From assembly GCA_001592805.2 (NCBI GenBank), contig CP051141.1, positions 310,001-374,000 of the forward strand: a stretch of 64,000 bases of DNA, read 5' to 3'. Every line of letters starts with the position of its first letter. Position 1 is the stretch's first letter. Shown piece after piece: positions 3,283 through 62,479 of this stretch. Below the pieces are notes generated by a model. It saw only the letters and a program-made list of their open reading frames with translations. It was not told where the DNA came from and ran no database searches. The DNA is from Peltaster fructicola. Lineage: Eukaryota; Ascomycota; Dothideomycetes. A program made the position numbers and the translations under genes.

Positions 3283-4353
3283 TCAACTCAAACAGCACCT
3301 GTGTGGCTCCTGCAACATCACTTCATACTGGCTGAAGCTGGCGGTCAACCATGGGACACCCAGATTCTGCGGCCACGGGAGATCTCGACGTTTCTCGAGC
3401 TCAAGGGTTGCTGCAGATCCCATGTCGGCCAGCCTCTTCTCAGCGTGGTTGATCACACTTCCCAGCTCTTTCGAAGGCAATCGCACTTGTACGTCGACCA
3501 CCATTTGGTGCACAATCGTCCACAGATCGGCGGAGTACTTGATGGCTTCACCATTGTTCCACATGAACAGGTTATCGGCATTGTGCTTATACCACGTACC
3601 GTCCTGCTGACGCTCAGTCAGTGTCATCAGCCTATACAGGGTCGCCCCAAGCGCATATACGTCACATGCTGGAGTGACAACGCGTTGGCCTCGATCGGCG
3701 ATTCTTGGCGAGACATCGTCGAGGAAGGGTTGCAACTCTGGTGCATCATAGCCAGGCGTACCCATTGCGCCGTCGCTACCAATCTCCCATGTGGCGAATC
3801 CAAGGTCCCCAAAGACAACGTCTGGCATCAACCCTGCGGATGCCGATCGACGGAGGAAGATGTTGCCAGGCTTGATGTCGCGATGGAGTACAGAAGATCC
3901 CTCAGCTCGACGCCATGCGTTGTCTCCTGGACGTTGGTGCCAACCATGCATCTTGAAGAGCCCACGAGCCAATGTCATGAGGAAGTGCCAGAGTACCTTC
4001 TCGTGGAGTTGCAGGTGATGCGTGCGCAAGTCATCAATCAGATGTTCCAGATCACCGCCATCGCAAAACTCGAAGAACATCCGCGCTGTACATGGCGCAC
4101 CCTCCCGAGGTGATGGATATATCTTATATCCGTGGAGCTGCACCAAGTCATCGTGGCCCTTAAGCGCGACATTGCGCATGAAAGCCTCCCTCGGAATGTC
4201 CTTGCTGTTGGCCCACAAGCAGATATCAGCGAGGCACTGCTCCTTCACGACATACCGCTTGCCATCGACGCGTGAACGGTATAGGATGACTTTGCCTTGT
4301 GCTCCATGCTGAAGGGCGCTTTCAAAGGCGAGGTTTGCAGCTTTAAACACTTC
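3283..4353 (-). CDS. Protein kinase domain, probably the 3' part of the coiled-coil gene
   Basis: A complete Ser/Thr-type kinase domain of about 355 residues: glycine-rich loop HGAQGKV, ATP-binding lysine in YVVKE (residue ~36), catalytic loop HRDIKPGN (~156), DLG in place of DFG (~182), and a DAPEL APE motif (~204). No ATG lies upstream of the glycine loop. The frame opens at a GTG codon, and the first in-frame ATG would remove the lysine. The kinase therefore almost certainly receives its N-terminus by splicing from the coiled-coil frame just upstream (see 4343-6013). A phase-0 join exists from 4411 or 4408 to 4353, giving a 58- or 55-nt intron, but the donors (GTCGTC, GTCGAA) are weak. The kinase family is not clear; it resembles NEK-like fungal kinases only loosely. 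Confidence 0.75.
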   Translation of the reverse strand, partial: EVFKAANLAFESALQHGAQGKVILYRSRVDGKRYVVKEQCLADICLWANSKDIPREAFMRNVALKGHDDLVQLHGYKIYPSPREGAPCTARMFFEFCDGGDLEHLIDDLRTHHLQLHEKVLWHFLMTLARGLFKMHGWHQRPGDNAWRRAEGSSVLHRDIKPGNIFLRRSASAGLMPDVVFGDLGFATWEIGSDGAMGTPGYDAPELQPFLDDVSPRIADRGQRVVTPACDVYALGATLYRLMTLTERQQDGTWYKHNADNLFMWNNGEAIKYSADLWTIVHQMVVDVQVRLPSKELGSVINHAEKRLADMGSAATLELEKRRDLPWPQNLGVPWLTASFSQYEVMLQEPHRCCLS

Positions 4354-6013
4354 CTGGCAATTTGGTGAAGCAGGGTGAAAGGTTCCACGAGCAGTGGGGA
4401 TCTTCGACGACCGACTTCAGCGGTATGTCGTATTTCGCCAGTCGAGCTTCCAACTCCCGCGTCCTGTGTTGCGCTTTATTGAGCTGGACTTTATGGATCT
4501 CGAATGCCTTCTTGCGTCGCTCGTGCACTTCGTCAAGCTCGACCCTTGCTCGTGCCAAAGATTGGCCAGTCTGGAGTGCATCCGCCTCGATGACCTCCTT
4601 GGCATTCACCTCAATCCTGAGCTTCGCCTGAACAGTCTTCAAACCGTTCTCGACCTCCTGTATCTTCTCCAGATGATTGGTTCTCTGTTGAGCCAGTGTG
4701 CGGTTGAGTTTGCGAGCCCTTTCCAGGCTTTTCTTCGTGGCTTCGAGATGTTTTGCAGTGTTCTCACACGCTTTCTGGAGACCTTGAATCACGATATGCC
4801 CGTTGCGAATGGTCTTGTCCTGGCCGTCGACTGTCAGCTTAAGCGTAGCGACTGTTTCGTCACGCTCAGCGAGCTGCTTGCGGAGTTCAACAAGCTCGGC
4901 CTCTTGTGCAGCTCCCTCATCGACATGCTGGTCGAGCTGTCTTCGAAGCACATTGAGCTCAGCCTCCTGTGCGGCTTCTTTGTTGTCTCGACGCTTGAGC
5001 TCTTGGACTGTAGCAAGGCATTGTAATCTGGAGCTGGCTTCCAAAGAGAAACGCTGGTTACTTAGCTCAAGCGCGTGCTTGTTGCGTTGATCAGTGACCT
5101 GCATCTTGAGAGTCTCGATTGTGTCGTCTCGAGCGGTAATGGCTTGAGCTTGCTGTGCTCTGAGGGCATTGACCTTCTCGTTGCATTCGACAAGAGCTGT
5201 GTTAGCGACGTTGATCAGGACGCTTGCCTTCAGGCCCAGTGTACGGCACCAAGTACGAGCAAAGTCGATGTCAGCCTGCTTCTCTTTGACGACGGCTGCG
5301 TGCTGTTCTTCTGATCTCTGCAGTCTCTGCGCAAAGTTGGTGGAAAGCAGCTCAGCATTGTTCAGTTGCGACCTTATTGCAGCCAGGGTCTGCTGTTCAG
5401 ACTTCAATTTGGCCTGAAGCTCGCAAATGCTCATAGCGCGGCTCAAAGCATCTGTCTTCGACGCCAGCAAATCCAGACGAGACTGATCAAGCTTATGCGT
5501 CAGCTGGACGATAGTGCCATTGGCAGCAGCGAGAGCAGCATTGGGGATATCATACACTGAATCATGCGGCGATGTTCCAGTCATGGCGAGGTATACTGCG
5601 CGAGTGCTTGCAGGTAGAATATCGTCAGACTCGATACTGGCTTGCTCGATGTATGCTGCCTGTGGTGGCTGTCCATGTCGCTCCCGGTCCGGACTGAGAT
5701 TCGACTCGAGTTCCTCAGGTGCTCCACCAACGACCTGATCATCATCATCAGCTTGTCCCAAGACGAGCTCTTCAGCCTCTGCTGGCACATCTCGTGCGCC
5801 GGCCAGACTTCCCTCCTCTTCTAGTGGCTTGACTGCACTCGAGGTGTGCTCAATGCAGGGAGGCTGCTCTCTTGTTATATATGGCGTCTGCTTGGAACGG
5901 TCGACGGCTTTGGTGAAGGCGACTATCTTCAGATCATCTCTGATCTCTCGAAGAATATTCTTTGCTCGGCGGCCACAGCCGGCAAGATTGCGCAAGAACG
6001 TTCGACCGACCAT
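4343..6013 (-). CDS. Coiled-coil protein, likely N-terminal part of a coiled-coil kinase
   Basis: The open frame encodes 556 residues from the ATG at 6013. Residues ~1-150 are basic, then acidic and low in complexity. From about residue 150 to 530 the sequence is a long heptad-rich coiled coil full of K, E, Q, L and A, with near repeats such as AAQEAEL...LRRQLDQHVDEG followed by AAQEAEL...LRKQLAERDE. The frame ends eight bases inside the neighbouring kinase frame on the same strand. Because that kinase has no start codon, I infer one protein with a coiled-coil oligomerisation region and a C-terminal kinase. I do not recognise a named family. If they are separate genes, this one would end with the unconserved tail after LAKYDIPLKS. 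Confidence 0.65.
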   Translation of the reverse strand: MVGRTFLRNLAGCGRRAKNILREIRDDLKIVAFTKAVDRSKQTPYITREQPPCIEHTSSAVKPLEEEGSLAGARDVPAEAEELVLGQADDDDQVVGGAPEELESNLSPDRERHGQPPQAAYIEQASIESDDILPASTRAVYLAMTGTSPHDSVYDIPNAALAAANGTIVQLTHKLDQSRLDLLASKTDALSRAMSICELQAKLKSEQQTLAAIRSQLNNAELLSTNFAQRLQRSEEQHAAVVKEKQADIDFARTWCRTLGLKASVLINVANTALVECNEKVNALRAQQAQAITARDDTIETLKMQVTDQRNKHALELSNQRFSLEASSRLQCLATVQELKRRDNKEAAQEAELNVLRRQLDQHVDEGAAQEAELVELRKQLAERDETVATLKLTVDGQDKTIRNGHIVIQGLQKACENTAKHLEATKKSLERARKLNRTLAQQRTNHLEKIQEVENGLKTVQAKLRIEVNAKEVIEADALQTGQSLARARVELDEVHERRKKAFEIHKVQLNKAQHRTRELEARLAKYDIPLKSVVEDPHCSWNLSPCFTKLPGSV

Positions 6014-55041: not shown

Positions 55042-56264
55042 CTAAAGACTGAATCTTGTACGCACCTTCTCATCATGGGCCTTCCATTCCCACTCTTGTC
55101 CGCTGAGGCGCTGAATGCCTTTGTCGATGCGTCTCAGCTTCAGCGTAAATCTAGGACCAAGCTCTTGTAGTCCTGCACGAACCTCTTCCACTCCCTCCAC
55201 CGGCTTGCCATCTGTACCTTGTATCGACTTCTCAGTACCACGCTTGTCTCGGAAGACGTAGCGATGCCTCCTCACAAAGATGTAGTCTCGTTGATTGTGC
55301 AAGGTCACAACCTGACGACCTTGGATCTCAGGGTGAGACGGAAACAGCGATTTGAACAGATGAGCTGCGAGAAGTCCAAGAGGCGTCTTGAAGCCATTCA
55401 GAATCATCTCGGGGAAGTGGTTTGTAGGATTACCGTGCCCAGGCAGTCGTGCTCCAGGTATCCAGTTGCTAATGCTGAAATGGAACATAGGTCCCACGGG
55501 GAGGAAGACGATATCCAGACCACTCGGGATCTTTTTATGCAAGTGCTGATTCAAGACAATGACATGTGTGTAGTCTCGCGCAGCAGCAAACTTCGCGATC
55601 TCTCGTATCGAAAACTTGTAGGAGTGGAAGTGCGCAGTGCGCTTGATGTACTTGGAATTTGGGAAGAGTGTGACCAGCAGTTCTGCTTCGGTGTGTAGTA
55701 CAGAGTTGATGCTGGTGGTGATAAGAACTTTCGGTGCGTAGTCCGGCGGAGGATCGAATAGTCTAGGAAATCGTAAGGACAACGACTCTGGCGTCAAAGC
55801 GAGATCGGTGGCTGTCGAAGTGGCTGTCGCTGTCGATGGTGCCTCACTAGGAGCACGATCGCCTGGCTCCGAAGACTCATTGTCCAATGCAGTCTCGTCC
55901 TCTCGTCTGTGTCCAGCATGCTGTCCACATCGTCTACATCATCGTCCTGCTCTTGCACGTGGTTATCCTCGTCCAGATCTGCTGGCTCTTCGCTTTGCGC
56001 CAGCTTCTGCCTCTTTGGATTGAGTACATCGACACTCCGTCCGAGAGCGCCATCGTCCTCTTCGTCAGCAACATCCCATGTGCGCTTCTTGTCAATCGTT
56101 GCTGGTACATTCCGCGCTCGTCTGTCAGTTCGCAGCTGTGGGTTCTTGTCTTCGTGTCTTCGGCGCTTGTGTCGCTCGTCTCGCTTGGTGTTCTCCTTTT
56201 CTTTCTTCTGCTTGAGATACAGCTCTCCTCGCTTGATCTTGTTGCCAATCTTGAAAGACGCCAT
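55042..56264 (-). CDS. RPF1: RPF1, Brix-domain ribosome production factor
   Basis: Nucleolar factor for 60S subunit maturation, a Brix-domain protein in the same group as Rpf2, Imp4 and Brx1. The N-terminus (MASFKIGNKIKRGELYLKQK) is basic and matches fungal Rpf1. An acidic linker follows. The Brix domain begins APKVLITTSINSVLHTEAEL and continues through FSIREIAKFAAARDYTHVIV, with GPMFHFSISNWIPG and FVRRHRYVFRDKRG; the C-terminus ends in WEWKAHDEKVRTRFSL. The N-terminal and Brix parts lie in different frames. The switch falls in the acidic linker around 55880-55960, through either a very short intron (a 38-nt GTAGAT...GAGAG option exists) or an indel in low-complexity sequence. Confidence 0.88.
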
Positions 56265-56701: not shown

Positions 56702-59000
56702 ATGCGACTCCTGACCAGGACCAACGACGGGTACCTAAGTTTGATCAACCGACAGACAGAACCGTACGCTATTTTATCCCACACATGGGGCTCTATCAAC
56801 AACGAACTCATGTTCGATGACGTTCAGAATGGGATCACCATTGACGACGCTCAAGTCAAATCCCGTAAGATTGCTGGTTGCCTCGATCGGGCTGAAAGAG
56901 ATGGGTACAGTCATATATGGATCGACACTTGCTGCATTGACAGACGTGATGTATTGGAGCTGGGGAATTCCCTCAACAGTATGTTTCAGTGGTTTGCACA
57001 GGCTGCTGTCTGCTATGTGCACCTTGCGGACGTATCGACTCGTGACGAATTGGTCAGGAGCAGATGGTTCACTCGCAGCTGGACTCTGCAAGAGCTCGTT
57101 GCACCAAAGGACGTGCGATTCTTCTCAAGTGATTGGGAGTATCTTGGCGACAAGTTGACGCTACATGAGGAGGTCTTCGCTGCAGCCAGAATCGATGTCC
57201 TTACACCTTTACGGAACGTTCCAATTTGGGAACGCTTCTCGTGGTCTTTGAATCGGCTTTGTACACGTTCGGAAGATGAGGTTTATTCTCTGCTAGGTCT
57301 TCTGGAGGTAGACATGGTAGTCCTGTATGGCGAGGGCTCATATTGCGCACATGAGCGACTCTTCGAACGTGTGCAAGAGACGCACGGCGAGATAATCGGT
57401 ACTACCGTCCAATTCACTTGGTACGCCCACAACCTTGCCGATTCCTCGACTGCGCAGCACGATATACAAAAGACATCGGACATTTTCGAGCTACTACAAT
57501 CTTTATACAATCAAGGCAGAGGCCTCAGCAAGCTCGATAATGCTTCTCCTTTTCCTGGTACGTGTACCTGGTTGCTCTCGAACAAAGCCTTCCGAGCGTG
57601 GATCGAAATGGAGTCATCTCGACTGCTGTGGATTAAAGGCAAACCAGGATCTGGGAAGTCTACTCTGATGAGGTTCGCTGCTGAGAATCTGCCCAGTGAT
57701 TCACAAGTTGTACAGTGGTCTTTCAGCATGCACGGCCACGAACTGCAACGATCGGCCAGTGGGCTGTATCGTGTTCTATTGTTCGAGCTGCTAAGGGTTC
57801 CTGGTGCACTCCCGGGCAATGTCTTACAGCACATACTTGGGATCTACACAGACAGGAAGCATATCAATTCAACATGGACCGACGCAGTCCTCGAGACTGC
57901 ACTTCGAATGGCATGCGAAGCACTAAAGCGGCCTGTGCGCTGTTTCGTCGATGCACTTGATGAGTGCCATAACAAACAGATCATGGACATGATACATTTC
58001 TTCGAAGACATCAGGTTCAGCAACTTGTACATCTGCTTCTCCAGCCGCTACTATCCGCTCATCCACATCCGCCAAAGCGTAGAGATCCACCTCGAGCAGG
58101 AAGTGCAGCACTCCAAGGACATAGAAACCTACATTCGCAGGCGTCTTGCCAGACACTGGCCTAATACAACTGGTTATGGTCTGGATGCTAGGATCTCGAC
58201 CAAGGCTGGTGGCTTCTTCCTCTGGGCAGTACTGCTCGTTCGAGTGATAGACAGAGAGCTGTCCAAGAGCTCCATGCGCACCAGCGAGCGATTACTTGAT
58301 TTCGTGCCCGGACGTCTGTGCGATTTCTATGATTCATTTATAACTGTGCCGGATTCGGATTCCTTTCGACTGTGTATTATGTGGCTTCTATTCTCTACAC
58401 GCCCTTTGAGCTCGGTCGAGATCTTCTACGGAATACAAACAAAGCTGGCCCTTGGGGCAGTTCATCTCACTCTCCAATCGGACGTTCCAGCGCAATTTCT
58501 GGCGGATTTCCTTGTGAAGCAGTCGAAAGGTCTCGCGGAAATCAACATTGATGCGGCGCTCAACGCAAGAGCACAGTTCATTCACGAATCTGTCCGTAAC
58601 TATTTCCTGCGCCATGGTGGATTGAAGAGACTCATGCTAGGGCAAGCGGACACTCATCTCGAAAGTGTTGCCCATGACATTCTCAAAGGTATCTGCCATG
58701 ATTACGTTCATCAGCTACCAACGGCCCATGCGCAAAAGCAGACATTCCTGTCGTATGCACTGGCTGGCCTGTTCAAACATGCGGAGTCTGCTTCAGTGCA
58801 TATCCCACAAGACGACTATTTATCCTCCCTGGACCTCAAGCTCATTTTTACGCTGTGTACAACCTCTAAGGATCATCGCCTATTACCTCGAGAGCAGCAA
58901 CTCTCCGTAACACATCTCTTGGCCCTCTTCGACACACCAAGACTGATTAGTCGTGCTCACGAACTTGGCTATGATCTCACATGCTCCGCAAGCCCGAGAC
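56702..59000 (+). CDS. HET-NACHT NLR-like protein, N-terminal part
   Basis: Fungal NLR-type receptor. The HET domain (~residues 1-230) shows all three hallmark blocks: YAILSHTWGSI, the IWIDTCCIDR segment, and RSRWFTRSWTLQELVAP. The NACHT NTPase starts near residue 285 (GTCTWLLSNKAF), with Walker A IKGKPGSGKSTLM (~310-322) and a Walker B-like FVDALDECHNKQIMDMI (~412-428). HSKDIETYIRRRLARH follows, typical of this fungal NACHT class. A helical linker leads to HLLALFDTPRLISRAHELG, where ankyrin-like sequence begins. The domain order fits non-self recognition proteins such as HNWD-type NLRs, which trigger cell death after cell fusion. The C-terminus continues in the next entry, in a different frame. 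Start ATG 56702 gives the usual HET opening. Confidence 0.88.
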
Positions 59001-62000
59001 GCCACTCGTCGTGGCGATTCACAATCATAGTTGGAGGGCAGTCAAAGAGCTGGTCCAATGTGGTGTTGATGTTGACGAGGGTCTTGAGCCACCATTGATC
59101 ATACTGGCAGGAACAGACAATGCTGACGTCCCTACTTTTGAGTTACTGCTGTCTCGAGGTGCCAATGTCGATGCACAAACTTCCACGGGTGAGTCAGCAC
59201 TGCACAGGGCGGTCTCAAAGCCGCAACATCTTGATATCGTCCATGCTCTCTTGGCCTGTGGAGCCGACGTGAACCTATCAGACCGTACCGGAAAGACATC
59301 ATTAATGGTGGCCAGCGAGTCCGGATGTCTTGCCATCTCACAGGAACTGCTGAAGCATGGAGCTTATGTCAACAGCGTAGATCTTGATGGCTCAACGCCA
59401 TTGCTGTACGCCACTATGAAAGACCACGAAGACATTATCCAGCTTCTGTTGGACGCAGGTGCTGATCCCAATGCTATCAACAAGTATGGTCAGTCTGCGC
59501 TTTTGGTTGCCAGCCTGAATGGATATCGTTCGGTCTCACGATTGCAGGTAAGAGCAGGCGAACAACCCAAAGTTGAGTCGAATTCTTCCAGTATGAAATA
59601 TTACGAGAAGTCCCAGTCGATTCTACCAGACAGCTGGTCAGTGACCACCGACTCGACAGCTGTAACACTCGATGACTACCTTCGCCTTCGCGGTAGTATG
59701 ACTTTTGCATTGACGATGTACTCAGAGCTACCTGTGGATGAGCTTGACGAGGACGACATGGATTGCACAAAATCACATGACCCTATCAGAGGAGCGCTCG
59801 TCATGTTCGCATTCTCTATGCAACAACGTGCGACAAGTCAAGCTCAACGGTATGCCTCAAGGCTCGTACGGCAACAATCTGGGTAAGTATTGCCTCGGAA
59901 TAGTAATGCCGAGATGCTGATCAGGTCCAAGCACGATCGTAGAGAACTTCCTCAATAAAATTCTTCGCGCTCCAGCTCTTGCTTGCGGGGACGAACCAAG
60001 GCCAGATGCCGCTATCACTTCCAGCCACGATGCAGTTCAAGAATGGTTGAAAGATGAACATATAGAGGGAGATCCACCTCCAGATCTGCCACCAGATTCC
60101 AGCGAAGCTATACCGGAGCAAGAAGACATGATGGTTACTGCGCGGAACTTTCTTGTGGACAACGAAGTCTTCAGATGGCTACTTGCTCGCACCAGGCTCT
60201 TTATGACCAAGAGTCCCGGGCACAATATGCAGAAGATCTCGAGAACGTTGTATCGAGCGACAGCAGAGCAGCACCGCATGTCGACAGATATCACAACGGT
60301 CGATTTCATCATAGACTGGAACCCATCCCACTATCTGCACAAGAACTATCAGACACTTCCGGACATTGGAGACGTCATCGTTCTCACAAGTGACGATCGC
60401 CAGACGCAAGCGACGACCATCTCTGAATACATGTCGACGACTTGGCCATGTTCCGGCAGGCAAATGCTGCAGTACATAGGTCTTGTCATTAGTGCTATGG
60501 CTGGCCCTGCCACTCCTGGCTCTGGCGTGACCAAGAGCTTCGAATGTAATGACGCAATTGGCATCTGAAATTGTCGCTGACCTCAGGCAGGGCTCAAGTA
60601 CAAAGCCTCGATACAGATCTCGATTGAAATCGACGTACGCATCACGATCCGCGCACCTGCATTCCTCGTTGTTGAAGTCGGCGAGCAATTAGCATGGCTG
60701 GGTTCATCATGCCGAGAGGCAAGTCATCCTGACACTCAGAGTTGTTGCAGTCCCAAGATATCTGTTTCACGACCAGCCTTTGTGACCGGACATTGCGAAG
60801 TGCAGATCAGGTTCCCAGAGTCAGCGCAAACCCTCGATACTGACCAAGATGCCCAGTGCTGGCGATCACTGTTTCGTAACGTCTGCATTGGTGATGGTTT
60901 CCCGATTTCACTACGTCGTGAAGGAGAGCGAGGCCTTGAGATTCCATTTCGGATGATGGCCCAGCTTGGAGGTGCAGATCGTATCGCTGACTATGCTGGA
61001 CAGCGCCTGTTGAAAGGTTTCGAGACACTGTTCGTACCAGTCTGCAAGACTGCAACCTCGATCGTGTGGCATCTACTCACGGAGGTCCAAGGAAAAAGAG
61101 TGTCCCTGAACGCCTTCATAGACCGTCAGGTATTGGCAGAGCCTTCCGTTGATCTAGCATGCATCTGGAGAGCACGGCATTTCCTAGGCTGGGTTTCGAA
61201 GGCAACTCAGCACGCAGGCAAGTCGACTCAGCGCTTCGTCGTTGTGACAACTTAGCTGACTGCTGTATTAGGCACCAGAAACGCGCACTACAAAGGAAAT
61301 AGTGCTGTGTTCGTCCATGCAGCCAAACCAGGGCTCGTTCTTGAGAAGGCATCCATAAGCTTAAGTCATATTTTGGGCGGAGCTGTCACAGCTGCGCAAG
61401 GCCAAGTGCACCAAGGTATCAGGACATCTGACAGCAATTTGTCGTACTCAGAAAGGGTCGACCGCATGCGCGATATGCACATTCTGCTCTACGATGACCC
61501 AAAGCAACGGGGATGGTTGCTCGATGGTGCAAGTGCAGTACTCCACCTTCTGCGATTCCATCTTGACAGGGACCCATCGGTTCGGGAGGCCAAGCTGATC
61601 GATATGAAACAGTTTCCATACGCGCCAGATCAGATTGGCTGCGATGCGGCGATCGCGACTCTCAAGGCCGACCAGACCAGGAAGACGGAGCTGATTAGAG
61701 AAGTTGTCAAAGAGTCTGAGGTCACGGAAACGATCATCCAAGACGGAAAGACCACGACAAAGACCACAATCAGCGAAAAGACTGTCTCTCGCACGATCGC
61801 CGACAAAGTCATGGAGCTATGGGCTTGTCTTGAGGACATGTACGATGCTGCAAGCATGGCAAGACGCAGACCAGGCCTCAATACGAACGATCTTCTGGAT
61901 CATCTGGAAGGCTGGAGATTCGAAGACGTGGCCAGTATGAAAATGAGAATTGAGCCAAAGTTCTCTAAGATCGACGCAAAAGCTTCTGGCTGGCATCGAC

Positions 62001-62479
62001 TTGCTCAAAACGTCAATGCTGTTGTGCTTCTCGGCGGTGACTTTGGTCTGATGATAAGACCTACAGACCAGTGTTGCGCAAAATGGAAGCAGTTGCCTCC
62101 ACAACAGTACTGTCTTGCAGTCCCAGTCCAACTGCTCAAACGAATCTATGAGACGAACGGCGACAAAGGAGGATTCACTCTGGCGAAGGATGTCTGCTGG
62201 ACTCCTATCGAGCATACTTTCAGATGCAGTTGCGCAGAGCGACAGCGCAGACCTGGTCAGAAGTGTGACCCACGACAGATACTCTCTCGCTCCACCATAC
62301 TCATGGCCAACAAAGCCAAAATCACGCCTTTGCAGCTCTTTAGCAATGAGGAATATGCCCAAGGTGCCATCATGTTTGGACACCGCAAATTGCAGAAAGA
62401 CGAACAACCGGCTCTGGCCTCGAGCTTCAAGAAGAGTAGCCCATTTCGAAGACTCTTTACGCGCAGGACTCAAGGTTAG
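58975..62479 (+). CDS. Ankyrin repeats plus long C-terminal domain, probably the same NLR-like gene
   Basis: Starts with about five ankyrin repeats (ETPLVVAIHNHSWRAVKELV, GESALHRAVSKPQHLDIVHA, GSTPLLYATMKDHEDIIQLL). Introns: 59883-59931 (GTAAGT, GCTGATC, AAG acceptor); 60527-60586 (GTGACC...CTCAG, my best guess); 61218-61271, a GC-AG intron (GCAAGT...ATTAG) that joins ATQHAG to TRNAHYKGNSAVF. The ~800 residues after the repeats contain blocks I recall from many Pezizomycotina proteins of unknown function: LTSDDRQTQATTISEYMSTT, FVVEVGEQLAWLGSSCRE-like sequence, CIGDGFPISLRREGERGLEI, FVPVCKTATSIVWHLL, MHILLYDDPKQRGWLLDGAS, and WHRLAQNVNAVVLLGGDFG. A basic tail ends RRLFTRRTQG. No catalytic motif is evident. 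I infer one gene with 56702-59000; the frame differs at the boundary. Confidence 0.75.
61218..61271 (+). other. GC-AG intron
   Basis: This 54-nt intron starts GCAAGT and ends GTATTAG, with a TTAGCTGACTG branch-like site. Splicing restores a continuous protein (WVSKATQHAG-TRNAHYKGNS) across a frame change. Rare but accepted non-canonical donor type in fungi. Confidence 0.65.

What the first reader, a model, noticed from the sequence alone, without database searches (positions are those of the whole stretch)
56702..62479. HET-NACHT-ankyrin NLR-like receptor with a ~800-residue C-terminal module of unknown function
HET, NACHT and ankyrin domains occur in that order, followed by a large region that is not a known repeat or effector domain. 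Fungal NLRs usually end in WD40, ankyrin or TPR repeats; here the repeats sit in the middle and a globular-looking module follows. I recall similar C-terminal sequence in other Pezizomycotina proteins, without a function. If one protein, it would be ~1,800 residues: a possible cell-death effector, switch, sensor and unknown module in a single chain.
Basis: partly seen in the sequence, partly recalled or inferred. Interest (0 to 1): 0.75.

Follow-up and report, generated by a model that had tools for sequence, protein, structure and literature searches.

The report
Fungal immune receptor with extra domain
In the apple-surface fungus Peltaster fructicola, a cell-death-type immune receptor gene carries a large extra end piece that other fungi attach to kinases, proteases and nucleotide-cutting enzymes, but in the genome sequence examined its reading frame is broken in the middle.

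Summary
The domains are real and in the stated order: HET (56,765-57,037), NACHT of NPHP3_N type (57,557-58,048), five ankyrin matches, then about 900 residues without a significant match in the local Pfam. The window is Peltaster fructicola, deposited protein AMS68_003968, 1,690 aa. That model starts 93 residues late, losing most of the HET match, and crosses a frame break with a 278-nt "intron" whose contents align with coding sequence in 8 of 11 paralogs. None of 7 paralogs tested shares the break. Ankyrins and module start lie in one exon.

Best reading: an NLR whose C-terminal module regulates or senses, with HET as executioner. The sequenced copy is split, spliced round the break, or misassembled; RNA and raw reads would decide. 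New variant of a known kind.

The parts
56702..58990 (+). HET-NACHT reading frame, residues 1 to about 763 (the frame stays open to the stop at 59,096-59,098, but after about 58,990 the ankyrin sequence is in the other frame)
56765..57037 (+). HET domain, profile positions 1-90 of 146; HET-like sequence seems to continue to about 57,390 (by eye)
   Evidence: Pfam PF06985 48.7 bits; this place is one of 83 HET matches in the genome
57557..58048 (+). NACHT-type P-loop NTPase (NPHP3_N); GKPGSGKS at 57,638, FVDALDE at 57,944
   Evidence: PF24883 110.4 bits; motif positions (Walker A and B roles recalled)
58753..59030 (+). 278-nt intron implied by the deposited protein AMS68_003968; its first 240 or so bases align with coding sequence in paralogs
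58972..59000 (+). interval in which the reading frame changes between NACHT part and ankyrin part
58975..59882 (+). exon with ankyrin repeats (to about 59,544) and the first helical part of the module
   Evidence: PF00023 107.8 bits, 5 stretches; helical part
59883..59931 (+). intron, 49 nt, GT-AG
   Evidence: agrees with P0001
59617..62476 (+). C-terminal module (PF28131 family), interrupted by three introns; left end approximate
60170..62284 (+). conserved core of the module (deposited protein residues 955-1626)
60293..60712 (+). best-predicted alpha/beta part of the module (maps to P0059 residues 150-267, ten-residue means of pLDDT 93 or more)
60546..60590 (+). intron, 45 nt, GT-AG
   Evidence: agrees with P0001
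61218..61271 (+). intron, 54 nt, GC-AG (CAG|GCAAGT)
   Evidence: agrees with P0001
62477..62479 (+). stop codon of the module frame

Best explanation
The locus is an NLR-type (STAND) immune or incompatibility receptor gene that evolved as one chain: HET executioner, NACHT switch, ankyrin repeats, and a C-terminal PF28131 module. SHOWN: the domains, their order, ankyrins and module start in one exon, and the family of the module. INFERRED: that the ancestor was one frame (from paralogs); that ankyrins and module hold the NACHT off until a cue binds one of them; that the NACHT then exchanges nucleotide and oligomerises, bringing HET domains together to start cell death. The module is most likely the regulatory or ligand-sensing part, because in some relatives it sits behind or between effector domains (kinase, caspase, phosphorylase) in chains where Pfam detects no NTPase or repeats, that is, where a sensor would be needed. 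In the sequenced strain the frame break between NACHT and ankyrins means that the full chain is made only if splicing goes round the break or the break is a sequence error; otherwise the copy is split or non-functional.
For: Domains. Ankyrins and module start in one exon. Ancestral single frame: 7 of 7 paralogs tested keep one frame from NACHT into ankyrins, 6 of 7 without a stop (an eighth locus with both kinds of match, L029, was not tested). Module under constraint: 28 of 34 near-invariant positions kept, and 1,118 codons open after splicing. Module as partner of effector and NOD domains: among the 65 proteins, phosphorylase PF01048 in 21, NPHP3_N in 10, Zn cluster in 9, kinase in 3, caspase in 2 (my counts from the precomputed lists); in 4 of 16 proteins that I scanned (P0025, P0033, P0036, P0053) a caspase or kinase precedes the module and Pfam shows no NTPase or repeats. 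HET as a death domain and the NLR activation model: PMC9815663, PMC12258605, PMC12881547 (passages).
Against: The frame is broken in the assembly, which was built from nanopore reads and polished three times, with about 256x Illumina reads among the data (PMC7181583, passages), so a simple sequencing error is not the easy answer. The module has strongly conserved motifs, unlike hypervariable NLR sensor repeats, and conserved polar residues (E, Q, C, E, K, H, R, H kept in the window copy; a ninth, T, is V here) could equally be an active site. No ligand, no fold match and no functional data bear on a sensing role. Tandem Repeats Finder sees no array in the ankyrin stretch, so the high internal similarity described for fast-evolving NLR repeats is absent.
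Confidence: 0.45

Rival explanations
1. Split or decayed allele: in this strain the locus makes a HET-NACHT protein that ends at 59,098 and, at most, a separate ankyrin-module protein; the full receptor is no longer made. (This and the next two rivals concern the break, not the role of the module, so they do not exclude the best explanation of what the gene was.)
For: Two frames overlap at 58,975-59,095; 7 of 7 paralogs tested keep one frame; the shortest GT-AG pair that keeps the frame open is 86 nt, against a genome median of 50 bp (PMC7181583, passages). One paralog (L024) has three in-frame stops, so decay in this family occurs.
Against: The ankyrin-module part is open over 1,118 codons with usable introns and keeps 28 of 34 near-invariant positions, so it is not old junk.
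Confidence: 0.3
2. The break is a leftover sequence error, and the living strain encodes one chain of about 1,875 residues.
For: Both sides are intact and conserved, and the paralogs tested are continuous; the disagreement is local (58,972-59,000).
Against: Three polishing steps with about 256x Illumina reads among the data; I see no long homopolymer at the site.
Confidence: 0.25
3. Splicing goes round the break, by the deposited 278-nt intron (58,753-59,030) or by an 86-nt one (58,907-58,992), so a slightly shortened single chain is made.
For: Both keep the frame open (33 such GT-AG pairs in the stretch scanned); the assembly was annotated by BRAKER with RNA-seq hints.
Against: Both would remove sequence that aligns with coding sequence in paralogs (8 of 11 align to or past residue 750); the 278-nt one also cuts into the first ankyrin repeat. 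Whether RNA reads support either is not known here.
Confidence: 0.2
4. The module is a second executioner or enzyme, not a sensor: the receptor carries a death domain at each end.
For: Nine polar positions are shared by 55 to 60 of the 59 to 61 rows with a letter there. Conserved surface or pocket chemistry of this kind is usual in enzymes.
Against: No enzyme match of the module in Pfam, NCBIfam or PDB sequences and no significant structural match; absence of a match is weak evidence. Many module proteins already carry a separate enzyme domain.
Confidence: 0.2

Closest known systems
Fungal HET-NACHT-ANK NLRs (for example P0098 of Lachnellula, named Vegetative incompatibility protein HET-E-1 by its source)
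   Same: HET, NPHP3_N/NACHT and ankyrins in one chain; 11 further loci in this genome match the HET-NACHT part, L029 only its NACHT half
   Different: None of the other 119 of the 120 listed relatives carries PF28131; 839 further matches were not listed
HNWD family, HET-E/HET-D/HET-R of Podospora anserina
   Same: N-terminal HET, central NACHT (PMC9815663, PMC12881547, PMC4986451, passages)
   Different: WD40 repeats instead of ankyrins, no module mentioned in the passages seen
PF28131 proteins of other Pezizomycotina, nearest Cladosporium sp. NU13 P0002
   Same: 36% identity over 98% of the module region
   Different: P0002 has an NB-ARC-like N part (FxSxx_TPR model, E 2.2e-9, far under that model's cut-off) and no Pfam match; others have kinase, caspase, NACHT, Zn cluster, or a C-terminal phosphorylase

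Membership tests
Fungal NLR (STAND receptor) | N-terminal effector domain | tested here: met
   HET PF06985 48.7 bits against cut-off 22.5, profile 1-90 of 146; the deposited model lacks most of this stretch
Fungal NLR (STAND receptor) | central NACHT or NB-ARC NTPase | tested here: met
   NPHP3_N PF24883 110.4 bits (cut-off 24.8); PF05729 itself 18.6 bits, under its cut-off 26.7; P-loop and Walker B letters present
Fungal NLR (STAND receptor) | superstructure-forming repeats behind the NTPase | tested here: met
   five ankyrin stretches
Fungal NLR (STAND receptor) | all parts in one polypeptide | tested here: inconclusive
   frame break at 58,972-59,000; paralogs tested are continuous; no transcript data held
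PF28131 (name not available here) | match to the family model | tested here: met
   precomputed assignment on the deposited protein P0001; the model is not in the local library and could not be run
HNWD (HET-NACHT-WD40) | WD40 repeats | tested here: not met
   no WD40 match in the five pieces at E up to 1
Nucleoside phosphorylase (PNP_UDP) NLRs | PF01048 domain | tested here: not met
   no PF01048 match in the window gene; listed for 21 of the 65 module proteins
SRPBCC / START-like helix-grip fold (for the best-predicted part of the module) | structural match to solved members | tested here: inconclusive
Known enzyme families | sequence or structure match of the module to a curated or solved enzyme | tested here: inconclusive
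   no hit in Pfam or NCBIfam, PDB sequences best E 0.38 to a plant TCP10 entry; no Foldseek E at or below 0.001

The most novel reading that the evidence does not exclude
PF28131 is an immune control module of new fold, widespread in filamentous fungi, that can take over the role of the NOD-plus-repeats unit: it gates kinases, caspases and nucleotide-cleaving enzymes directly, and in Peltaster it has been added to the end of a complete HET-NACHT-ankyrin receptor, giving a four-part receptor with two stacked sensing parts.
Probability: 0.25. Interest if true: 0.72.

Novelty: new variant of a known kind. Interest (0 to 1): 0.47.

Why it matters
Fungal NLRs are usually sorted by effector, switch and repeat type. 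A large conserved module that recurs with several immune-type effector domains, for which I found no solved look-alike and no published function, is a gap in that scheme. This gene ties the module to a HET-NACHT-ankyrin receptor and so suggests a test system. The public record also seems to mis-describe the gene: it lacks most of the HET match and implies a doubtful intron, so surveys that rely on it will miss the architecture.

Tried and rejected
Chance explanation: rejected; HET, NPHP3_N and ankyrin scores are above cut-offs and the module has 64 other relatives in two searches.

Fusion of two neighbours on the ankyrin/module side: rejected; the ankyrin exon contains the start of the module. 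Caveat: the profile came from alignment A3 with the window protein's row removed after aligning, so a slight lean towards the result remains.

Bacterial origin of the module: one scan of genome contigs with A2 found no relative (49 pattern stretches, none confirmed); it used a single peptide pattern and is weak evidence.

Second copy in the genome: exon 5 finds only itself; exon 4 also finds a 31-residue relic near the end of chromosome 1 with two stops.

PADLOC: only ankyrin-bearing and P-loop models match the deposited protein, none the module. The HET-NACHT part has no PDB sequence match at E 0.001.

Programmed frameshift: I saw no classical -1 slippery heptamer in 58,975-59,098 by eye; no formal test.

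Literature: PF28131 and AMS68_003968 give no paper. Searches by domain combinations gave fungal NLR surveys, of which I saw listings and, for four, passages; the module is not mentioned in those passages, but I read none of them whole.

Full report
WHERE IT IS. The best protein match is hypothetical protein AMS68_003968 of Peltaster fructicola, 100% identical over the module region. The genome held has 18,987,130 bases in 5 contigs, as in the published 18.99 Mb chromosome-scale assembly (PMC7181583, listing, passages). That paper gives a median intron of 50 bp, a nanopore assembly polished with Pilon, Nanopolish and Pilon again using about 256x Illumina reads, and BRAKER annotation with RNA-seq. 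The neighbours are a Brix-domain gene (55,042-55,938, minus strand) and an importin-11-like gene (62,668 to the window end, minus strand).

WHAT THE SEQUENCE SHOWS. The frame from ATG 56,702 carries HET (residues 22-112, profile 1-90 of 146) and an NPHP3_N-type NACHT (286-449, whole profile). A second frame, 58,975-59,882, carries five ankyrin stretches. Three introns, one of them GC-AG, then give an open frame to the stop at 62,479; the deposited protein implies the same three. The part behind the ankyrins has no hit in the local Pfam except a sub-threshold phage model at E 0.078.

THE DEPOSITED MODEL IS PROBABLY WRONG IN TWO PLACES. It starts at residue 94 of the HET-NACHT frame, so most of the HET match is missing and its domain list lacks PF06985, although the upstream frame is open and several paralogs match from residue 1. 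It also implies removal of 58,753-59,030 as an intron. The residues encoded there align with coding sequence in paralogs: of the 11 loci fetched (of 49 matches), 8 align to or past residue 750, two stop at residues 697 and 718, and one stops before the stretch. The 7 paralogs tested all keep the same frame from NACHT into ankyrins, 6 without any stop, while L024 has three stops upstream of the junction; an eighth with both kinds of match, L029, was not tested. A scan of donors 58,600-58,984 and acceptors 58,975-59,059 found 95 GT/GC-AG pairs that keep the frame open, 33 of them with a GT donor; the shortest of these is 86 nt (58,907-58,992), and it and the deposited one each match 2 of 4 donor positions that I scored. 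The simplest statement is that the ancestral gene was one frame and the sequenced copy has a break near 58,972-59,000, true or artificial. I do not propose how to close it.

ANKYRINS AND MODULE BELONG TOGETHER. A profile of the helical start of the module, built from 51 relatives with the window protein's row removed, matches the tail of the ankyrin exon at 13.3 bits; the best of 500 shuffles of that tail reached 8.4 bits and the ankyrin part alone -1.6. The match is modest, but it lies in the same open frame as the ankyrins and next to the much stronger rest of the module.

THE MODULE FAMILY. Two searches gave 65 proteins including this one (14; 53, of which P0006 and P0009 were known already). 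One search failed to list 12 of the 14 proteins, six of the eight rows of its own query alignment among them, because only the candidates sharing most words are scored; so all counts are lower bounds and the sample is uneven. Of the 65, 56 carry PF28131 in the precomputed list; that accession is not in the local Pfam, so its name and limits are unknown to me. By my count of the two lists: phosphorylase PF01048 in 21, NPHP3_N in 10, Zn cluster PF00172 in 9, kinase PF00069 in 3, caspase PF00656 in 2, ankyrins in 1 (this gene). I scanned 16 of the 65 with the local Pfam (P0029 twice) and compared the positions with the core spans: kinase (P0033, P0053), caspase (P0025, P0036) and NACHT (P0016, P0034) lie before the core; the phosphorylase lies behind it in 9 of 9; the Zn cluster of P0016 lies between NACHT and core; P0038 has DUF7082 in front; and P0002, P0020, P0026, P0029 and P0049 have no Pfam match at all. 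The nearest relative, P0002 of Cladosporium, matches an NB-ARC-like STAND model at E 2.2e-9, far under that model's own cut-off (that FxSxx_TPR is an NB-ARC-like protein is recalled). Core spans run from about 560 to 755 residues in proteins of 1,000 residues or more, with N flanks from 0 to 1,144 residues over the whole set.

HOW RARE IS THE COMBINATION. Searching with the HET-NACHT-ankyrin part of the deposited protein, 959 proteins passed E 0.001; of the 120 listed, only the query itself carries PF28131. The other 839 were not seen.

MECHANISM. Shown: domains, order, family, conservation (28 of 34 near-invariant positions kept here; the window protein was one of the 61 rows that defined them). 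From papers seen in passages: HET is a cell-death domain related to TIR, NACHT is the switch, C-terminal repeats sense (PMC9815663; PMC12258605; PMC12881547; PMC4986451). Inferred: the module regulates or senses. The argument is positional: in two caspase-module-phosphorylase chains, one kinase-module-phosphorylase chain and one kinase-module chain Pfam finds no NTPase or repeats, so something else should control the enzymes. An effector role is the main rival, since conserved E, Q, C, K, H and R residues could form an active site. I put the regulatory reading at about 0.45. The three rivals about the break are separate from this question and share odds among themselves.

VERDICT. A real and unusual four-part receptor architecture, with a module already known to Pfam by accession but for which I found no function, in a copy whose frame is broken in the assembly. 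New variant of a known kind; interest 0.47.

Noticed in passing
G000:C1:4863830-4863922 (L031; L032 around 4334-4420): A relic of about 30 residues of the conserved module motif with stop codons, about 26 kb from the end of chromosome 1: possible trace of a second module copy.
   Followed up: partly
G000, 83 HET matches and loci L019-L029: This very small Dothideomycete genome holds 83 HET matches (this gene included; pieces of one gene can count twice); one HET-NACHT-ANK paralog (L024) has three in-frame stops.
   Followed up: partly
P0015, P0016, P0018, P0019, P0021, P0047 (Xylaria and relatives): NPHP3_N, Zn(2)-Cys(6) cluster and the module are listed together in six proteins; in P0016 the Zn cluster lies between NACHT and module. 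A DNA-binding type domain inside an NLR-like chain deserves a look.
   Followed up: no
P0013, P0014 (C-terminal ends): Two divergent module relatives, one from Aureobasidium, end in a hydrophobic segment that looks like a membrane anchor (alignment, by eye).
   Followed up: no
window 61218-61271: GC-AG intron (CAG|GCAAGT) in the module, also implied by the deposited protein.
   Followed up: no
G000:C3:379258-379755: A further HET match about 5 kb beyond the window end on the minus strand.
   Followed up: no
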